From: an uncultured Alistipes sp.
Lineage (GTDB): Bacteria > Bacteroidota > Bacteroidia > Bacteroidales > Rikenellaceae
Reading direction: 5' to 3'
NCBI GenBank assembly: GCA_900546065.1
Contig: URBK01000019.1
Span: 1 to 59,883 of the forward strand
Length of the DNA stretch: 59,883 nt
The translations under genes and the position numbers were made by a program. This document shows positions 17,094 through 56,473 of the stretch, piece after piece; within the stretch, counting starts at the first letter, position 1, and each line of letters starts with the position of its first letter. The notes beneath the pieces were generated by a model. It searched no databases, was not told the origin of the DNA, and worked only from the letters and a program-made list of their open reading frames with translations.

Positions 17094-17176
17094 CCCTGCA
17101 CGCCCGAGGGGGCGCGATCGAGAGGGGGGGGGAATAGCGAATAATAGCCGACGTTGTCGGAATAGTGTAGACAAGA

Positions 17177-39511: not shown

Positions 39512-40765
39512 GTCGTAAATGGTATTTGTCCGGTTGGTAACAACAAAGATAATAAACCGGCGATGCAATGGCAAGTCAAACCTGCGGTTTTACGGGGCGG
39601 ATGTATCGCTGTGCCGTTTCCATGGCGCTCCTGATCCCATTTTTAATGGCCCTTTATCGGATAAATCTCCCAAATTTTCCTCTGTTTCGCCATGCGTATG
39701 ATTGTGCCGCAGACGACAATTATTTCCATGAAGGGTATATTTCTTCCATGATTCGCGGAAGAGAGGCAGACGTATGGCGGGCGGTGTATTATAAAAATTT
39801 TTAATAAATGTTTTGGCGCGCGTTTCGCCCTGACGGCACATAGCGTCATGGGCGGCCTCTTTTCGAATTTTTCCGGCTGCTGTTATTCCGCTGACTAATA
39901 TTGCTATATGCGCGTCGACGCTGAACCTATGCGGTGAAAATGCAATTTGTCTTTTCCCGCGTAACATTATTTGCTCTTTATACGGTTTAGTATTAAAAGT
40001 GTTATTGGCCTTTTTTTATAAAAAACCGAATGGCTAAATTTACCAATCGAAAGAGTGGAGATATAGAAACGAAAAATTTATAATAAAAAAATTATGTCTG
40101 AAATATTGCTTGAATGCAAATAATGATTAACTTTGTAAATGAAGAAGGAAGTGTAATAATGCCCGAAAACAGGTTATATTATTTGACCGCGTCATTGGAC
40201 AAATGCGCGCGGAGACATGAGGAGGGAAAATTGCCCCCCCCTATCGGACATGTCATTTTGTTGTAAATCACAGTTTTGTAGAGTACAGGCACGGCTATTT
40301 GAGCCATGGGTGCAGTCGGTGTGACATGTAGGTGATGCAGTGTCGCATCGATTATCGTGTTTTGTTGTATTCGATTAGCGGCGGGCGGCGGAGCCCGTGA
40401 AAATGGCCGTATCGTTGTATGCTTGACGATGATACGAGAACGACAGCATATTCCCTGTGTCCGTAAAGGGGGCTTTCGCTTGGTGCGAAGGTATCCTGCG
40501 ATTGCGGGTTGGGAAAGATTTGAACCAACCGTTTTGAACCTAAAATAAAGAACAACACTAACCTAAATGATTATGCCTATGAATAGAGCCTAACTACGAT
40601 CCTTTAACTACATCACCATTGCATACTTAATGTTCGGATCAATGTGTGGAGTCCGAATTTGACAACGTATTGCGCAGGCATCTTGACGATGCGGTGCAGA
40701 ACGTTGTATGGAGATGTATATACCATTTATCAGACAAAACCATCAACCTAACTAAATTTCTAACC
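39512..40765. other. Long intergenic region with divergent promoters and leader of the first SusC/D locus
   Basis: About 1.25 kb without a gene, clearly AT-rich (39780-40140) and then mixed. On the minus side a -7 box TATCTTTG (39544-39551, with TTGC 19 bases upstream) serves the GH2 gene. On the plus side TTGC (40106-40109), an 18-bp spacer and TAACTTTG (40128-40135) could start the first SusC/D locus. That gives an unusually long leader of about 620 bases containing a run of eight C (40234-40241). No convincing riboswitch or small gene was found in the leader. Confidence 0.55.
40106..40135 (+). promoter_or_regulatory. Probable promoter of the first SusC/D locus
   Basis: TTGC (40106-40109), 18-bp spacer, TAACTTTG (40128-40135). 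The spacer is slightly short, and the start lies about 620 bases before the first ATG. Confidence 0.5.
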
Positions 40766-42169
40766 ATGAACAGATTCAACGTGAGAAAACCCTTACTGTC
40801 CGTAGTGATGTTATGTGCTATGGGCATTGTTGGGTGTAAAGACGATTCGACGGCAGGCGGCGGGCAACCATACGATCCGTCTAAGCCCATCGAATTGACC
40901 GATTTCTATCCTAAGGAAGGAAAGTATCAGGAGAAGGTGATTCTGCAGGGCAGCAACTTCGGAACCGATCCGAGTGCCATCAGAGTCTATTTCAACCAGC
41001 GCCCGGCTGCCGTTATCGGCACTACCGGAAGCGAGATCTACGTTCAGGCGCCGCGTCTGCCGGGAGACGAGTGTAAGTTGTCTGTTGTCATCGGCGAGGA
41101 CTCGGTGGTGTACAACGACATCTTCCTCTATGAGTCGTCGATGACCGTGGCTACGGTCGTGGGCAACGGAACGAAGATCTACAAGGCCGGAACATTGGCC
41201 GAGGCTCAGGTCTCGCCCTACTATTGCTGTGTGGATGAGAGCGGCAACGTATTCGTGATCAGCCGTAACGGTGATGAGGGCGACGTTTCGACGATCGCCC
41301 GTATAGACGAGGTGAACAGCGAGTTGGTAACGCTCGCTTCGAATACCATCGGTAACGTACCGTGCGTCGACCCTGAGACTCAGGTCGTATCGTTTGCCAC
41401 GGAGACCACCATCGGCTCGTTCATGACGCTCGACCCCAAGGAGATGTGGGCTCCGCGTTACCGCGAGATGAAGTGGCCTGCAGGAATACCTGCGCAGATA
41501 ACCAACGGTTACAAGCACTGTATGGTGGTGAATCCCGACGACGGATACATCTACTGCCGTTTCTATTTCGGACAAGTGGTGCGTATTGACCCCAAGAGCT
41601 ACGAGACGACGGTTATCGCCGTAACGCCGCAGGGTGACAGCTACGGTCTGTCGTTCAATCCCCAGCACCCGAATATCCTCTATATCACGATGGACAGCAA
41701 CGGTCTGGCATACGAGACGCCTCAGGGAACGCTCGGTACGGCCAACAGTATATGCTGCATCGACGTGTCGGCCTACAACGGATATGACGATCCGGCAGAG
41801 GCACAGGCCGCATGTCTCGAGACCTTCGAGCGTCTGTCGTCGCCCCAGACGTCGGGCGGACACCGCGACGGCAAGCTGGAGAATGCGCAGTTCCGTCGCC
41901 CGTTCCAGATGTTCTGCGACGCCGATGGCAACATGTATATTGCCGACTGCGATAACCAGTGCATTCGCCGCATGGTGATTGATAGGGACAATTACCGCAC
42001 CGGAACCGTCGAGACGGTACTCGGTATGCCGGGTACGGCAGGCTGGCAGGACGGTACCGAGGAGGAGGCTCTGTTCCAGTATCCTCGCGGTATCGGTATC
42101 GCCGATGACGGTACGGTTTACGTAGCCGACTACGGCAACGCCCGTATACGTAAGCTCTCGATTAATTAA
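40766..42169 (+). CDS. IPT/TIG and NHL-repeat surface lipoprotein
   Basis: A 467-residue lipoprotein (lipobox GIVGC, Cys24) encoded just before a SusC-like gene. Residues about 40-120 form an IPT/TIG domain (IELTDFYPKEGKYQEKVILQGSNFGTDPSAIRVYFNQRPAAVIGTTGSEIYVQAP). The rest is an NHL-like beta propeller (ATVVGNGTKIYKAGTLAEAQVSPYYCCVDESGNVFVIS; DADGNMYIADCDNQCIRRMV; VLGMPGTAGWQDGTEEEALFQYPRGIGIADDGTVYVADYGNARIRKL). Such proteins occur in SusC/D loci as surface glycan-binding proteins or sensors. The ATG at 40766 is chosen because it starts the signal peptide. Confidence 0.85.
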   Translation: MNRFNVRKPLLSVVMLCAMGIVGCKDDSTAGGGQPYDPSKPIELTDFYPKEGKYQEKVILQGSNFGTDPSAIRVYFNQRPAAVIGTTGSEIYVQAPRLPGDECKLSVVIGEDSVVYNDIFLYESSMTVATVVGNGTKIYKAGTLAEAQVSPYYCCVDESGNVFVISRNGDEGDVSTIARIDEVNSELVTLASNTIGNVPCVDPETQVVSFATETTIGSFMTLDPKEMWAPRYREMKWPAGIPAQITNGYKHCMVVNPDDGYIYCRFYFGQVVRIDPKSYETTVIAVTPQGDSYGLSFNPQHPNILYITMDSNGLAYETPQGTLGTANSICCIDVSAYNGYDDPAEAQAACLETFERLSSPQTSGGHRDGKLENAQFRRPFQMFCDADGNMYIADCDNQCIRRMVIDRDNYRTGTVETVLGMPGTAGWQDGTEEEALFQYPRGIGIADDGTVYVADYGNARIRKLSIN

Positions 42170-50260: not shown

Positions 50261-50366
50261 AGTAAATAAGTTTTTGATGGAACTCGCAGCGGCACGATTC
50301 TCTCGTACTCTTTGGGGCTGCTTTGTCCCGCATTAATTTGTTAATAAAAAAGTTTCCGGCGGTCGG

Positions 50367-50561
50367 TTACTTTACGAGCAGGCTCTTGATCTTGGCCTCG
50401 TCGGCAGCCGACACGGTCGAAGCGTAGCAGAGATTGCGCTTCTGTTTCTTAGTCTTTTTGGTCAGGATGTGACTGTGATAAGCGTGCTTGCGCTTGATCT
50501 TACCTGTGCCGGTGAAAGTAAAGCGTTTCTTTGCAGCGGCATTAGTTTTCATTTTTGGCAT
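50367..50561 (-). CDS. rpmI: 50S ribosomal protein L35
   Basis: A 64-residue basic ribosomal protein: [44 protein letters not shown]. It is first in the rpmI-rplT pair. No infC precedes it, although infC is normally the neighbour; instead there is a promoter (-7 TATCTTTG, 50597-50604) and a 720-base gap to the next gene. Confidence 0.98.
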
Positions 50562-50596
50562 TTTTCGAAAAAGTTAATTTAGTTAAACATAGCGTG

Positions 50597-50604
50597 CAAA
50601 GATA
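50597..50604 (-). promoter_or_regulatory. rpmI-rplT -7 box
   Basis: TATCTTTG on the minus strand, about 36 bases before the rpmI ATG; the upstream spacer contains nine consecutive A (minus strand). Confidence 0.65.
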
Positions 50605-51085
50605 CGCTTTTTTTTTGAATATGTGCGCGGCGAGGATATTTTTTACGTCGGCGGTGAGGCCATAGGTCGCCATGTTTTGCCTGAAAAGGATGTGAAGATA
50701 GCGTAACTCGGGCGATTCAGATGCCGGCATTACGGTCGGGAACGGCTGGTGTCGTCGGCTTTGGAGGATGTTTGTCGACTTCGTTGTTTGATGTGGATAA
50801 AAGGGAACTTTTTTTCTGAGATTACATTGGTGCGTGATTCGAGCAGGCAACCAAAAACACTTTCATTATTAAATATTTTATCTATTCTGGGTCGCGATTA
50901 TTATTTGCGTCCTTTTTTTGTTGTAATCGTATTTTTCGGGGCAAAACGGACTTTCGTTGTTGAAATTATTTAAAAATAAAAATCATATCATGCGTTTAGT
51001 GCTGGAAATCAATGTGTAACGCACGAAAGTGGACCTTTTAATAAATTTGCTAACGAAAAAATGTTACCGTCAGAAGTAAGAAAAA

Positions 51086-51116
51086 TTTGCAAGCATAAAA
51101 TTAAATATTAAATTTG
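51086..51116 (+). promoter_or_regulatory. Promoter of the second SusC/D locus
   Basis: -33 TTTG (51086-51089), 19-bp spacer, -7 TAAATTTG (51109-51116), full consensus. The leader to the ATG at 51282 is about 160 bases. Confidence 0.8.
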
Positions 51117-51281
51117 CATTACCGAAACTTCAACCGACATAGTACTCGTAAGAGCAAAAAATTGATGTTCGTTTTGCTTGTGGAGTGCATGTCGTGTTTA
51201 TGTTAATGGGGAAACGGTTGTCGAGCCCGTTTGTAAAAAAAAGTCTCGACACTAACCTTTTTTTAACCTAATTATTAAATT

Positions 51282-54200
51282 ATGGTCAATTTCTACTCAT
51301 TCTCAAAGAATGTAGGGGGGGGGAAATTCCGAAATTCTGTGATTTCAGTATTTACCGTTGTATTGTTATGCTTTTCGGTAAATGCCAATGCGCAGAATAT
51401 AACCGTTACGGGTACTGTTACTGACGCTAACGGCCCGATGGTCGGAGTTGCCGTAATCGAGAAGGGTAACGAAACCAATGGTGTCGCTACCGATGTCGAC
51501 GGTAAATATTCAATTCAGGTTCCCGCCTCTGCCGAGATTGTATTCGAGAGCCTCGGATATCAATCGCAGACGATCAAGGTCGGATCGAAGACCGTGATCA
51601 ATGTCAAGATGGAAGAGAGCGCGCAGCGTCTGGACGACGTTGTGGTTACTGCTTACGGTACCCAGAAGCGAGCCTCGATCGTAGGTGCCATTCAGACGGT
51701 GGAGCCTGAAAGTCTGGATGTCGGTACTACAGCCAATCTGAGTAACAACCTTGCAGGTCAGATTGCGGGTATCATTGCCTACAAGCCTTCGGGTGAGCCG
51801 GGATATGATGCTTCGAGCTTCTGGATCCGCGGTATTTCGTCTTATCAGGGTACCACCACGCCGCTTGTGCTTGTCGACGGTATCGAGCGTACGCTCGATG
51901 ACCTCGATGTCGAGCAGATCGAGTCGTTCTCGGTGCTGAAGGATGCATCGGCGAGCGCCATGTACGGTGTGCGCGGTGCCAACGGTGTTATCGTCATCAC
52001 GACCAAGCGCGGTAAGATCGGTAAGCCGAGTGTAAACTTTCGTATCGAGCAGTCTATCCAGACGCCGACGCAGCTTCCCGAGTTCGCTGGAGCGGCCGAC
52101 TACATGGATCTCTTGAACGAACTTTATGCCGAGGAGAAGGGTGCCGGTTCGTATGTTTACGCACCTACGGTCATCGAGCGTACGCGTACGGGTTATGACC
52201 CCGAGCTCTATCCCGACGTGAACTGGCTTGAGGCCATCACAACCAACCTTGCCGAGAATACGCGCGCCACGCTGAATGTGAACGGCGGTAGCGAAATCCT
52301 GCGTTACTCGTTGGTTGCGACCTATTTCCGCGAGCATGGCATCATGGCCGTCGATCCGAATGTGGACTTCGATACGGCTACTCGTCTGAACAAGTTCACG
52401 GTACGTTCTAACGTTGACGTGAACATCACGAAGACCACGTTGCTCGGTATCAGCATCGGCGGTTATCTGCAGCAGCTTCGCAAGAGTGCCCAGTCGACCG
52501 ATACGGCATTCGATATAGCATTCCAGACTCCGAGCTTCGTGCACCCGCCCATCTATGAGAACGGCGCAATTCCTATCCGCTCGGGCCGTAACAACCCGTG
52601 GGCCGAGCAGACCCAGAAGGGTTACTCGCGTGTGACCGACTCGAAACTCGAGACTCTCGTTACGCTCGACCAGAAGCTGGACTTCATCACCGACGGCCTG
52701 TCGCTGAACGTGAAGTTCGCATTCGATAACTACCAGAGCAAGACTCTTACCCGTAGCAAGACTCCCGATTATTATAATGTAGCCACGACGCGTGACGAGA
52801 ATGGAGAGCTGATCCTCGACATCGAGAACTACGGACAGGAGTTCCTCGGAACCGAGGCAAGCGGTACCTACGGAAACAACCGTACCTACCTCGAGGGAAG
52901 CATCCACTACAACCGCACCTTCGGTGAGAAGCACAATGTGGAGGGACTGTTGCTCTACATGCAGGACAGCTACGACAGCGGCAGCTACCAGCCCTATCGT
53001 CATCAGGGATTCTCTGGCCGTCTCTCTTACAACTATGACAACCGTTACGTAGCCGAGTTCAACTTCGGTTACAACGGATCGGAGAACTTCGCCAAGGGTC
53101 AGCGTTACGGATTCTTCCCGTCGGGAGCAATCGGCTGGATCATCTCGGAGGAGCCTTTCTTCAAGCCCGCCAAGCATATCTTCTCGACGTTGAAGCTGCG
53201 TGCATCGTTGGGTCTGGCCGGTAATGACCAGATCGGAGGTCGCCGTTTCGCATACATCACCACCATCAACGAGGGTCAGGACGGCTATACGTGGGGCTAC
53301 ACGGGCGGTTACTCGCGCAACGGTGTCACCGAGGGTGATCCGGGTATCAGCGACCTGTCATGGGAGACCGTGCGCAAGGCCAATGTCGGTATCGAGATCG
53401 GTCTGTTCAACGAATTCAACCTGCAGTTCGATATCTTCGACGAGTATCGTACCGATATTTTCATCCAGCGTTCGTCGATACCTACGCAGAACGGTTTCAT
53501 CAACACTCCGTATGCCAACTACGGTATCGTGGACAACAAGGGATTCGAGGCATCGCTTTCGTGGAGCCACCGTTTCAACAAGGACTTCTATCTGCAGTTG
53601 CGCGGTACGGCATCTTACGCCAAGAACTGGGTTCGCGAGCGTGACGAGGCCGAGTCTCTGAAGGGAACCTATCGTAGCGCCACGAACCGTTCGGTGAACG
53701 AGCACTACGGATACGTTGCATTGCGCCTCTATGAGGACAGCGATTTCATCAACGGCGCGCTCGATCCGTCGCTGCCGCAGCCTGAGCTCGGTGCCGATCC
53801 CATGCCGGGAGATATCATGTATCAGGACCTTAACGGCGACGGTGTGATTACGGCCATGGACCAGACCTATATGGGTCATACGACTGCTCCGCGCTTCGTA
53901 TACGGTTTCGGCGGTAACTTCATCTACAAGAACTTCGATTTCAACGTCTTCTTCCAGGGCGTAGGCGATGCATACAAGGTTATCGGCGGTGGTTCGAACT
54001 ACTTCCTGCCCGGCTCGGGTCAGGGTATTCTTGGTAACCCCTATTCGAACTATCAGGATCGCTGGACCGTGGATAATCCTTCGCAGGATGTCTTCTGGCC
54101 GCGTCTGCACTACACCTCTACTATCAATAACCTGTCTTCGACGTGGTGGCTCAAGAACATGTCGTTCTTGCGCCTGAAGAACGTCGAGATCGGTTACAGC

Positions 54201-54377
54201 CTTCCCAAGTCGTGGGTAGAGAAGGTGCGTCTGAAGAAGCTCCGCGTATATGTAAGCGGTAATGACCTGTTGACCTTCTCAGGATTCAAACTCTGGGATC
54301 CCGAGATCGATACGAATACCGGTCTTCGTTACCCGGGAATGAAATCGGTTGTGTTCGGTATTGATTTGAACTTCTAA
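51282..54377 (+). CDS. susC: SusC/RagA-type TonB-dependent transporter (second locus), with a poly-G tract near its start
   Basis: A 1031-residue outer-membrane importer. The N-terminal signal segment ends NANAQ (about residue 38). Then come the carboxypeptidase-like domain (ITVTGTVTDANGPMVGVAVIEKGNETNGVATDVDGKYSI), the TonB-box-like LDDVVVTAYGTQKR, the plug (IRGISSYQGTTTPLVLVDGIER; IESFSVLKDASASAMYGVRGANGVIVITTKRGK) and a barrel ending YPGMKSVVFGIDLNF. Codons 12-14 are GGG-GGG-GGG, a run of nine G (51315-51323). With eight G translation would stop after about 19 residues, and with ten G after about 46, so gain or loss of one G would switch the gene off. The ATG at 51282 is the only good start before the signal sequence. 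The SusD gene follows 20 bases later. Confidence 0.95.
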   Translation: MVNFYSFSKNVGGGKFRNSVISVFTVVLLCFSVNANAQNITVTGTVTDANGPMVGVAVIEKGNETNGVATDVDGKYSIQVPASAEIVFESLGYQSQTIKVGSKTVINVKMEESAQRLDDVVVTAYGTQKRASIVGAIQTVEPESLDVGTTANLSNNLAGQIAGIIAYKPSGEPGYDASSFWIRGISSYQGTTTPLVLVDGIERTLDDLDVEQIESFSVLKDASASAMYGVRGANGVIVITTKRGKIGKPSVNFRIEQSIQTPTQLPEFAGAADYMDLLNELYAEEKGAGSYVYAPTVIERTRTGYDPELYPDVNWLEAITTNLAENTRATLNVNGGSEILRYSLVATYFREHGIMAVDPNVDFDTATRLNKFTVRSNVDVNITKTTLLGISIGGYLQQLRKSAQSTDTAFDIAFQTPSFVHPPIYENGAIPIRSGRNNPWAEQTQKGYSRVTDSKLETLVTLDQKLDFITDGLSLNVKFAFDNYQSKTLTRSKTPDYYNVATTRDENGELILDIENYGQEFLGTEASGTYGNNRTYLEGSIHYNRTFGEKHNVEGLLLYMQDSYDSGSYQPYRHQGFSGRLSYNYDNRYVAEFNFGYNGSENFAKGQRYGFFPSGAIGWIISEEPFFKPAKHIFSTLKLRASLGLAGNDQIGGRRFAYITTINEGQDGYTWGYTGGYSRNGVTEGDPGISDLSWETVRKANVGIEIGLFNEFNLQFDIFDEYRTDIFIQRSSIPTQNGFINTPYANYGIVDNKGFEASLSWSHRFNKDFYLQLRGTASYAKNWVRERDEAESLKGTYRSATNRSVNEHYGYVALRLYEDSDFINGALDPSLPQPELGADPMPGDIMYQDLNGDGVITAMDQTYMGHTTAPRFVYGFGGNFIYKNFDFNVFFQGVGDAYKVIGGGSNYFLPGSGQGILGNPYSNYQDRWTVDNPSQDVFWPRLHYTSTINNLSSTWWLKNMSFLRLKNVEIGYSLPKSWVEKVRLKKLRVYVSGNDLLTFSGFKLWDPEIDTNTGLRYPGMKSVVFGIDLNF
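51315..51323 (+). repeat. Homopolymeric tract of nine G inside the second SusC gene
   Basis: Nine consecutive G at codons 12-14, the type of tract that mutates by slipped-strand mispairing. Confidence 0.95.
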
Positions 54378-54397: not shown

Positions 54398-56473
54398 ATG
54401 AGAATATATAAATATATTTTGGTTCTGGTAGTGGCGATGTCGACGATGACCTCGTGCAACTACCTCGATAAGGAGCCCGATACCGAGCTTACGTTGGATA
54501 TGGTATTCGACGATAAGGTCCGTATGGAGGGTTGGTTGGCCTATGTCTATTCGGGTCTGCCGGATCCCCTGTGGGGCTACACCAACAAGTACGGCTGTGC
54601 TGCGTTGGCCGATGACCTGCGCCCCTCATATCTGTGGTATCAGTGGAGTTGGGACTGCAACCAGCGTGCCATCGGTATGTGGGCTACCAACACCAGCTGG
54701 AACGGTGACGTTTGGGCCAATATGCCCCGAAAGATCCGTGAGGCCAAGATCTTTATGGAGAATGTCCACACCATCGACTCGGATAACGTATATCAGAGCG
54801 ATGTGGACAATATGAAACTCGAGTGCCGTGCGCTTATCGCATACTACTATTGGTGGTTCCTCTACTGGTACGGACCGTGCCCGTTTGATCCCGAATCGCC
54901 TTCGGTGCCTTCGTCGACGCCTATCGACGAGTTGAAGTATGGTCAGGAGCCTTGGGATACGGTTGTTGATTGGCTCGACAACGAGCTCAAGACGGTAGGC
55001 GACTTGCTTCCGGTAGAGTACTCGGAGAGTGACAAGTTCGGCCGCATCAACCGCTTCTTCTGCTACTGTACGCGTGCCCGTATGTTGCTCTTCAACGCCA
55101 GCCCGCTGGTGAACGGCAACCCGATGTATTACGATCACGTTAACCACGAGGGTGTGAAACTCTTCCCGCAGAGCTACGATGCCAACAAGTGGCAGCGTGC
55201 GTTGGAGGCCAACAAGGCCGTCATCGATCTGGCTGAGGAGTACGGATATGAGTTGTTCAAGGTTTACAACGACGATGGTACGATCGATCCCTTTATGTCG
55301 CTGTTGGGTGGAGCTACGTCTCCGTTCAACCCGCAGGGCGGTAACAACCGCGAGGTTCTGTTCGCTCGTCCTTCGGTCTCTTACACCACGTGGGTTGCAT
55401 ACAACACTCCTTACGGATACAAGGGTAACGGCGGTATGAGCGTATCGCAGTCGTTGGTCGACGCCTTTGCCTTGAGTAACGGTATCTATCCGTTCGATCC
55501 TCTTGACGGCGAGTATGAGGGTGACTATTATCAGAAGGATGCCAACGGTTACAAGACCATTCCCGTTATCAATCCCGATGCTACTCAGGCCGGATATTCG
55601 GAGACTGCATTTGCCACGGATCCCGTATATCGCAAGACGAAGTGGTCGGGTTCGCAGGATGTGCGTGACGACGGTACGGCTATGATCACCGATGCCAATA
55701 CCTATATGATGTATGTCAATCGTGAGCCTCGTTTCTACCTTACCACGAAGTATAACGAGATGTGGTTTGTTCCGGGCAAGCGTAAGTGCTGCTTCTATAA
55801 CAGTGCCTACCTTGATGCCGGTCAGACTTTCGAGGATCTGGTAGGCCATACGTCTAACGATAACAATGGTACGCACGATGCGCCCAACAACGGTTATCTT
55901 GCCAATAAGGCCGTCAAGCCGGGTGATGATAACCTGAACGGCAGCTTCGTATACCAGCAGGGTAAGTTCTACGGTCTGGCCGAGTTCTATCTCAACTATG
56001 TAGAGTGTCTGAATCAGGTCGAGCCCGGAAACTCGGATATTCTGAAGTACTTGAACCTTATTCGTGAGCGTGCAGGTGTGCCCAAGTACACGTGGGGAGC
56101 CGCAGGCGAGGATGAGATACAGGTGCCGTCGGATCAGGAGTCGATGGATCGTTTGATCAAGCGTGAGCGCCGCGTGGAGCTTTGCGTCGATGATTCGAAC
56201 ATCCGTTGGTCGGATCTCCGTCGTTGGATGATGATGGAGGAGGTTTGCGACGGTCAGGATTACTACCACGGTGGTATGAACTTCACCGGAACGAAGCGTT
56301 CGACCGACAAGAACGATCCTCGTGCCTTCTACGTGCGTACCGCTAACGGTCTTCCGCGCGTATGGAAGGAGGAGTACTATTGGATGCCTATCTTCCAGAC
56401 AGAGATCGATAAGAACGAGAATCTCGTGCAGCTTCCCTTCTGGGAGGATGCCGCTACCGATGATGGCGAATAG
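54398..56473 (+). CDS. susD: SusD/RagB-type lipoprotein (second locus)
   Basis: A 691-residue lipoprotein (lipobox MTSC) and partner of the upstream SusC. Family features: LECRALIAYYYWWFLYWYGPCPF, FFCYCTRARMLLFNASPLVNGNP, AEFYLNYVECLNQVEPGNS, LNLIRERAGVP, and DRLIKRERRVELCVDDSNIRWSDLRRWMMME. It ends in WMPIFQTEIDKNENLVQLPFWE. The many Trp and Tyr residues are consistent with glycan binding. It is 20 bases after susC and 19 bases before the SusE-like gene. Confidence 0.95.
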   Translation: MRIYKYILVLVVAMSTMTSCNYLDKEPDTELTLDMVFDDKVRMEGWLAYVYSGLPDPLWGYTNKYGCAALADDLRPSYLWYQWSWDCNQRAIGMWATNTSWNGDVWANMPRKIREAKIFMENVHTIDSDNVYQSDVDNMKLECRALIAYYYWWFLYWYGPCPFDPESPSVPSSTPIDELKYGQEPWDTVVDWLDNELKTVGDLLPVEYSESDKFGRINRFFCYCTRARMLLFNASPLVNGNPMYYDHVNHEGVKLFPQSYDANKWQRALEANKAVIDLAEEYGYELFKVYNDDGTIDPFMSLLGGATSPFNPQGGNNREVLFARPSVSYTTWVAYNTPYGYKGNGGMSVSQSLVDAFALSNGIYPFDPLDGEYEGDYYQKDANGYKTIPVINPDATQAGYSETAFATDPVYRKTKWSGSQDVRDDGTAMITDANTYMMYVNREPRFYLTTKYNEMWFVPGKRKCCFYNSAYLDAGQTFEDLVGHTSNDNNGTHDAPNNGYLANKAVKPGDDNLNGSFVYQQGKFYGLAEFYLNYVECLNQVEPGNSDILKYLNLIRERAGVPKYTWGAAGEDEIQVPSDQESMDRLIKRERRVELCVDDSNIRWSDLRRWMMMEEVCDGQDYYHGGMNFTGTKRSTDKNDPRAFYVRTANGLPRVWKEEYYWMPIFQTEIDKNENLVQLPFWEDAATDDGE

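What the first reader, a model, noticed from the sequence alone, without database searches (positions are those of the whole stretch)
51315..51323. Poly-G tract predicted to phase-switch a SusC-like receptor
Nine consecutive G form codons 12-14 of the second SusC-like gene, before the signal sequence. I translated the alternatives: with eight G a TGA follows after about 19 residues; with ten G a TGA follows after about 46. So single-base slippage in either direction silences the transporter, while the downstream SusD and SusE-like genes stay in frame. Phase variation of SusC/D systems is known mainly by DNA inversion; slipped-strand control of a SusC would be unusual.
Basis: partly seen in the sequence, partly recalled or inferred. 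Interest (0 to 1): 0.8.

Follow-up and report, generated by a model that had tools for sequence, protein, structure and literature searches.

The report
Slippery G9 tract in SusC gene
A gut bacterium related to Alistipes carries a run of nine Gs just after the start of a nutrient-importer gene; relatives keep that run in the DNA even where the protein changes, which suggests that slippage of the run switches the importer on and off, although no switching has been observed.

Summary
In detail: G9 at 51315-51323 forms codons 12-14 of a SusC-type receptor (51282-54377). Eight or ten Gs would end translation after 19 or 47 residues. The nearest orthologs lie in Alistipes MAGs.

The tract is kept at DNA level: G9 in 4 of 5 orthologs read as DNA (G002, G003, G130, G032), GGGGAGGGG in the fifth (G001). 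In G130 it is shifted one base, so the peptide differs. In G130 and G032 no glycine codon outside the tract is GGG (0 of 94, 0 of 105), while conserved fourfold codons share the window's third base in only 39% and 34%. In a related species, proteins with a near-identical partner include 6 of 16 lacking the first 67 residues; that fits OFF states, at protein level only.

Tempering this: G/C runs of exactly nine are abundant across the genus and largely intergenic, pointing to a mutational attractor, and no 8- or 10-G allele of this gene was seen in DNA.

Verdict: probable slipped-strand contingency locus, working like meningococcal hmbR, in a protein family known for phase variation by inversion. 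Switching itself is unproven.

The parts
51315..51323 (+). G9 homopolymer, codons 12-14 (Gly-Gly-Gly), the proposed slippage switch
51282..54377 (+). SusC/RagA-type TonB-dependent receptor, 1031 aa, in frame (ON) with G9
51282..51395 (+). N-terminal segment read by eye as a signal peptide (MVNFYSF..KFRNS / VISVFTVVLLCFSV / NANAQ); the tract lies in its n-region
   Evidence: sequence; no signal-peptide predictor was run
51086..51116 (+). promoter-like pair TTTG (51086-51089), 19-nt spacer, TAnnTTTG (51109-51116); the Bacteroidota consensus is recalled, not from a call
   Evidence: sequence; both elements kept in G001 and G002, the second altered in G003
51251..51284 (+). conserved leader running into the start codon (ACTAACC..TTTTTTAACCTAATTATTA..ATG), closely alike in G001, G002 and G003
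54398..56473 (+). SusD/RagB partner gene, starting 21 bases after the susC stop
   Evidence: PF07980, PF14322
56493..57683 (+). SusE-like gene, third in the row
   Evidence: PF14292
51339..51341 (+). in-frame GTG after the tract, a possible alternative start; also GTG in G001 and G032, another codon in G002, G003 and G130
   Evidence: sequence

Best explanation
The G9 tract is a slipped-strand (contingency) switch in the n-region of the signal peptide of a SusC-type importer. With nine Gs the receptor is made and exported (ON). Gain or loss of one G during replication shifts the frame before the signal-peptide core and ends translation within 19-47 residues (OFF); a further slip restores it. 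Shown: sequence, frames, DNA-level retention of the tract in related species, genus-wide excess of G/C runs of nine. Indirect: OFF forms in another species, seen only as N-truncated proteins. Inferred: slippage rate, reversibility, and benefit (perhaps escape from phage or antibody, or avoiding a costly importer).
For: Tract is G9 in G002, G003, G130 and G032, shifted by one base in G130 so that VGGGK becomes SRGGE. The only GGG codons of the gene are in the tract in the window, G130 and G032; G001 and G002 have one more each. Third-base identity with the window at conserved A/G/P/T/V codons falls to 0.39 (of 264) in G130 and 0.34 (of 260) in G032. In one related species 6 of 16 proteins with a near-identical partner lack exactly 67 N-terminal residues and are interleaved with full-length ones (P0026/P0015 and P0023/P0009 differ by 1 aa in the shared part, P0022/P0010 by 3). 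Of 36 distinct SusC genes held as best-match loci carry G9 in the 5' coding part (3 are orthologs) and none carries a run of 8 or more in the remaining 102.7 kb. A different SusC is split at its G9 in the complete genome G154 and is one open frame in the near-identical G013 copy.
Against: No 8- or 10-G allele of this gene was found in DNA; the four uninterrupted orthologs are all nine and in frame. G001 has an interrupted tract, so at least one lineage does without. The G154/G013 pair differs by one base at the edge of the tract, not in the number of Gs (both nine), so it is a frameshift at a tract rather than a plain length change. N-termini are also shortened among near-identical proteins of two control sets (2 of 71, 8 of 40), though by 15-26 residues to a position that is Met in the partner, not by 67 to one that is Val. 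Long G/C runs are a genus-wide, mostly non-coding feature. Retention is not special to this gene: of the window's other three runs, the C9 at 49897 is absent from the site in G001, G002 and G003 and the G9 at 17124 could not be aligned, but the C8 at 40234 is C9 in both G002 and G003. The DNA behind the truncated proteins could not be read.
Confidence: 0.6

Rival explanations
1. Mutational attractor without a selected switch: replication in this genus drives G/C runs of 7 or more towards nine, genes mostly purge them, and this one is tolerated because nine is a multiple of three. Occasional frameshifts are simple loss of function.
For: In 1.2 Mb of G154, G/C runs of length 6/7/8/9/10 number 117/5/15/51/2 while A/T runs fall off smoothly; 57 of 68 runs of 8 or more touch no gene call; runs of at least nine have a median of 19 per genome in 180 genus genomes; mutS is over its cut-off in 7 of 8 genomes, so simple loss of mismatch repair is unlikely; one leader tract beside the other PUL is also kept in relatives.
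Against: A neutral tract should be broken by substitutions over the divergence seen here (fourfold third-base identity 34-39%); it is broken in 1 of 5 orthologs. Mutational drive could still mend or rebuild it. SusC tracts lie at the 5' end in the 36 genes, but two G154 SusC genes have internal tracts.
Confidence: 0.28
2. Translation starts after the tract (GTG 51339 or later), so the tract is only in the leader and slippage does not shift the frame.
For: An in-frame GTG follows the tract in the window, G001 and G032.
Against: It is another codon in G002, G003 and G130, while the upstream ATG and an open frame through the tract are present in all five orthologs read. In the window no basic residue would be left before the hydrophobic stretch.
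Confidence: 0.05
3. The glycine-rich peptide is selected at protein level and the GGG codons are incidental.
For: At least two adjacent glycines are present in 4 of 5 orthologs (G001 has Gly-Glu-Gly).
Against: Neighbouring residues and the register of the tract change (VGGGK, SRGGE, CGGGR), yet the codons stay GGG in genes that otherwise hardly use GGG.
Confidence: 0.04
4. Sequencing or assembly artefact in the tract length.
For: Homopolymers are error-prone; the window's origin is unknown.
Against: The same G9 is read in four other genomes, and nine Gs keep the gene open.
Confidence: 0.03

Closest known systems
Neisseria meningitidis haemoglobin receptors HmbR and HpuAB (poly-G in the ORF)
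   Same: Outer-membrane receptor system with a coding poly-G tract; hmbR is ON at effective lengths divisible by three, commonest length nine (51.3%), and one of 76 hmbR sequences has an A within the tract (PMC3786947, passages read), as G001 has here.
   Different: Meningococcal tracts vary among isolates with ON/OFF states checked by phenotype; here only nine is seen in DNA. SusC is a SusD-paired importer in another phylum. No orthology was tested.
Bacteroides fragilis SusC/SusD phase variation by DNA invertase (Nakayama-Imaohji 2009, not read; seen as a summary sentence and reference in passages of PMC12632263 and PMC11868660)
   Same: ON/OFF control of SusC/D outer-membrane importers in Bacteroidales.
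   Different: Inversion by a recombinase versus slippage. Here one imperfect 17-nt inverted pair spans the promoter; it was not followed up.
Campylobacter poly-G phasome (recalled; PMC11868660 passages cite Bayliss 2012 on repeat number and rate)
   Same: Many G tracts per genome, some in surface genes.
   Different: In this genus most tracts are outside genes and the length peak at exactly nine is very sharp.

Membership tests
Slipped-strand (SSR) phase-variable locus | Homopolymer long enough to slip, inside the ORF or promoter | tested here: met
   G9 in the ORF
Slipped-strand (SSR) phase-variable locus | One-unit gain or loss abolishes the product | tested here: met
   by translation only
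Slipped-strand (SSR) phase-variable locus | Tract retained beyond protein constraint | tested here: met
   interrupted in 1 of 5 orthologs
Slipped-strand (SSR) phase-variable locus | Tract length differs among or within strains | tested here: inconclusive
   only nine seen in DNA, one genome per species; N-truncated proteins in a related species
Slipped-strand (SSR) phase-variable locus | High-frequency reversible switching with a phenotype | not testable with these tools
   needs cultures or reads
SusC/RagA TonB-dependent receptor | CarboxypepD_reg-like domain and Plug, with susD next to it | tested here: met
   no beta-barrel Pfam match at 0.001, but full-length SusC-like homologs
Invertase-controlled SusC/D | Inverted repeats flanking the promoter | tested here: inconclusive
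   (50300-51700): three pairs of 12-19 nt, 84-92% complementary; only arms 50555-50571 / 51372-51388 (17 nt, 88%) span the promoter, with the right arm inside susC; no invertase was sought
HmbR/HpuB family | Haemoglobin-receptor orthology | not tested
   compared for working only; no membership claimed

The most novel reading that the evidence does not exclude
The genus has a mutational set-point of exactly nine for G/C runs and has built a phasome on it: SusC importers, surface lipoproteins and PUL regulators carry tracts placed so that nine is usually ON, with one-base slips giving combinatorial ON/OFF importer repertoires, independent of the DNA inversions used by Bacteroides.
Probability: 0.33. 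Interest if true: 0.82.

Novelty: new variant of a known kind. Interest (0 to 1): 0.6.

Why it matters
SusC proteins decide what a gut Bacteroidales cell imports and can serve as phage receptors (recalled). Control by slippage would be stochastic and invisible to searches for DNA inversions, and would add a second route to importer heterogeneity in a common gut genus. The sharp nine-base mode also makes it possible to test directly how replication sets homopolymer length.

Tried and rejected
Mismatch-repair loss as the cause of the tracts: mutS1 over cut-off in 7 of 8 genomes; G130's best hit was below it. mutL was not searched. Finding more orthologs by leader pattern: 5 of 180 genomes, namely G002, G003, G130 and two not examined (G087, G169). 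The leader DNA search gave 6 of 180; the short matches in G111 and G090 were set aside. One search gave four loci; L003 (33%) and L004 (43%, partial) are not orthologs. DNA for the truncated proteins: a search of 268 family genomes found nothing nearer to P0010 than 81%. A first hexamer gene model over-called antisense ORFs; coding counts come from the retrained model. From I kept only the frame readings at 321785 and 907602. One search stopped with an error on the last tract (1199770), after all counts were printed. One of its 11 'in gene' tracts (981868) only touches a stop codon. One search counted five 5' tracts by its rule; I added L076 and L078, which it listed as 'upstream' because their longer N-terminus shifts the expected start, although both runs lie inside the open frame. 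G002 and G003 stretches were chosen around tracts, so their histograms are not genome-wide. In one search the script picked a wrong-strand ORF for L221, which was therefore not read. No structure prediction was run.

Literature: nine searches of open-licence PMC. Alistipes + phase variation + homopolymeric and + slipped gave 0 papers. Of the seven papers only passages of PMC12632263 were seen. No paper was read whole.

Full report
The tract. Nine Gs lie at 51315-51323 and are codons 12-14 of a 1031-aa ORF at 51282-54377. The product has CarbopepD_reg_2 and Plug domains; SusD and SusE-like genes follow. The N-terminus reads MVNFYSFSKNVGGGKFRNS, then a hydrophobic stretch and NANAQ, so the tract lies in what looks by eye like the n-region of a signal peptide. 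With 8 or 10 Gs the frame closes after 19 or 47 codons; 6 or 12 Gs keep it.

Is it more than chance? The window has four G/C runs of 8 or 9 and none of 7. A synonymous re-draw of the window's called genes expects 0.5 coding runs of at least 8, so one such run is not surprising by itself. But the gene has 101 glycine codons (GGT 56, GGC 20, GGA 22, GGG 3) and the three GGG codons are the tract.

Orthologs. A scan of GTDB contigs gave two full-length orthologs, 93% identical, in Alistipes MAGs, among four loci; genome searches added G003, cut by its contig end after about 245 codons, G130 (75%) and G032 (73%). Tract: G002 G9, G003 G9, G130 G9, G032 G9, G001 GGGGAGGGG. In G130 the run starts one base later relative to the ATG, giving SRGGE in place of VGGGK, still in frame. 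In G130 and G032 none of the glycine codons counted outside the tract is GGG (0 of 94 and 0 of 105), while conserved A/G/P/T/V codons share their third base with the window in only 39% (of 264) and 34% (of 260). The tract is therefore kept by selection or by mutational drive rather than by the protein. The upstream ATG and open frame are present in all five; the in-frame GTG after the tract is GTG in G001 and G032 but not in G002, G003 or G130.

Other tracts of the window in relatives. The C9 at 49897 is absent from the aligned site in G001, G002 and G003, and the G9 at 17124 fell outside alignable sequence. The C8 at 40234, in the leader of the neighbouring PUL, is C9 in G002 and G003. So retention is not unique to the SusC tract.

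Natural OFF forms. Among the 26 closest proteins, P0020 and P0022-P0026 (965-966 aa) lack exactly the first 67 residues compared with P0008-P0015 (1032-1033 aa) of the same group. Their longest contigs are 8 to 370 kb and they are interleaved with full-length forms (P0026/P0015 1 difference, P0023/P0009 1, P0022/P0010 3 over the shared part). By a 97% rule, 6 of 16 proteins with a near-identical partner are truncated; in two control sets the figures are 2 of 71 and 8 of 40, but there 15-26 residues are lost, down to a position that is Met in the partner, whereas here the new start is Val in the partner. P0007 (1005 aa) also lacks the tract region but has no near-identical partner.

A second SusC. 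In the complete genome G154 a SusC is split at a G9: the upstream ORF carries STN, CarbopepD and Plug, the downstream ORF the beta-barrel, in different frames. In G013 the same gene is one open frame of 1119 aa. The two loci are 99.4% identical over 4.8 kb; around the tract they differ by a single-base length difference at its edge, both having nine Gs. This shows a frameshift at a G9 in an otherwise intact SusC, not a plain change in G number. Other coding tracts include an LRR lipoprotein whose signal peptide and body lie in different frames (907602), two ORFs in different frames meeting at a C9 in G003 (L198; read here as one split surface protein, DUF4906 match just below cut-off, not verified), a GLUG/fn3 protein, a hybrid two-component regulator, an AraC regulator, and a further SusC with C9 at codons 6-9 in G002. 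The SusC at G154 189119 has G9 in the signal peptide in G154, G153 and G156, an interrupted run in G160, and none in L217-L220, L222 and L223.

Genus-wide pattern. In 1.2 Mb of G154, G/C runs of length 6, 7, 8, 9, 10 number 117, 5, 15, 51, 2. Runs of at least nine have a median of 19 per genome in 180 genomes of the genus (9.5 per Mb), against a median of 2 runs of exactly nine (0.55 per Mb) in 246 other genomes drawn from the order (the two patterns differ, for G002 27 against 23, and the order draw includes some family members). Only 11 of 68 runs of 8 or more in G154 touch a gene call, against 80-88% of runs of 4, 5 and 6; the figures are 1 of 4 in the window, 3 of 25 in the chosen G002 stretches and 3 of 27 in those of G003. 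Nine thus looks like a length to which slipping runs settle, and genes largely exclude such runs. Against that background, of 36 distinct SusC genes among the best-match loci carry G9 in the 5' coding part (3 of them orthologs) and none a run of 8 or more in the remaining 102.7 kb, although G154 has two other SusC genes with internal tracts.

Mechanism. Replication slippage at a run of nine, with nine giving a 3n register and thus ON, would explain the retention and the length. OFF cells would lack the receptor; SusD and SusE may fall by polarity. Benefits are inferred only. The strongest rival is that nine is merely a tolerated mutational end point; it explains the genus-wide spike but less well the retention in orthologs whose synonymous sites are so diverged.

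Known systems. The nearest in working is hmbR, with a coding poly-G that is ON at 3n, most often nine (PMC3786947, passages). SusC/D phase variation in Bacteroides is described as inversion (PMC12632263 and PMC11868660, passages); the words 'slipped' and 'homopolymer' do not occur in the first, and 'homopolymer' occurs once in the second, about Mycobacterium. Searches with Alistipes and slippage terms found no paper. I rate this a new variant of a known kind, not yet shown to switch.

Noticed in passing
window 40159-40266: Short ORF (35 codons, read by eye) in the roughly 600-nt leader of the first PUL (first gene at 40766), with CCC CCC CCT at a poly-C run that is C8 here and C9 at the same site in G002 and G003; it begins MP(E/Q)N in all three. 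It could be a leader peptide with a Pro-Pro-Pro stretch at a slippery tract.
   Followed up: partly
L105-L124, L145-L184 (G154) and genus-wide: Spike of G/C runs at exactly nine bases with very few of seven, mostly outside genes.
   Followed up: partly
protein P0021: First about 600 residues nearly identical to the window's SusC, the rest clearly different; a barrel swap at a conserved ENFAxGxRYGFFPS stretch or a metagenome chimera.
   Followed up: no
proteins P0008/P0012 and P0010/P0014: Lys or Asn at the codon right after the glycines while the region from residue 68 on is identical, suggesting extra variability or errors beside the tract.
   Followed up: no
window 50555-50571 and 51372-51388: Imperfect inverted pair (17 nt, 88%, 800 nt apart) spanning the susC promoter and the tract; the right arm is in the signal-peptide codons.
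   Followed up: no
G003 contigs C2, C11, C13 (L185, L194, L196): Contigs end about 110-160 bases beyond a G/C tract of 9-11, as if assembly breaks near them.
   Followed up: no
L053, L067, L091, L094: C9 runs 170-300 bases upstream of the expected SusC start, possible promoter-side tracts.
   Followed up: no
window 51251-51284 and other SusC starts: A CTAACCTAA-like motif just before the start codon recurs by eye at several SusC genes.
   Followed up: no
L207 (G136): Another SusC relative with C9 coding for a proline run about 290 bases into the open frame held.
   Followed up: no
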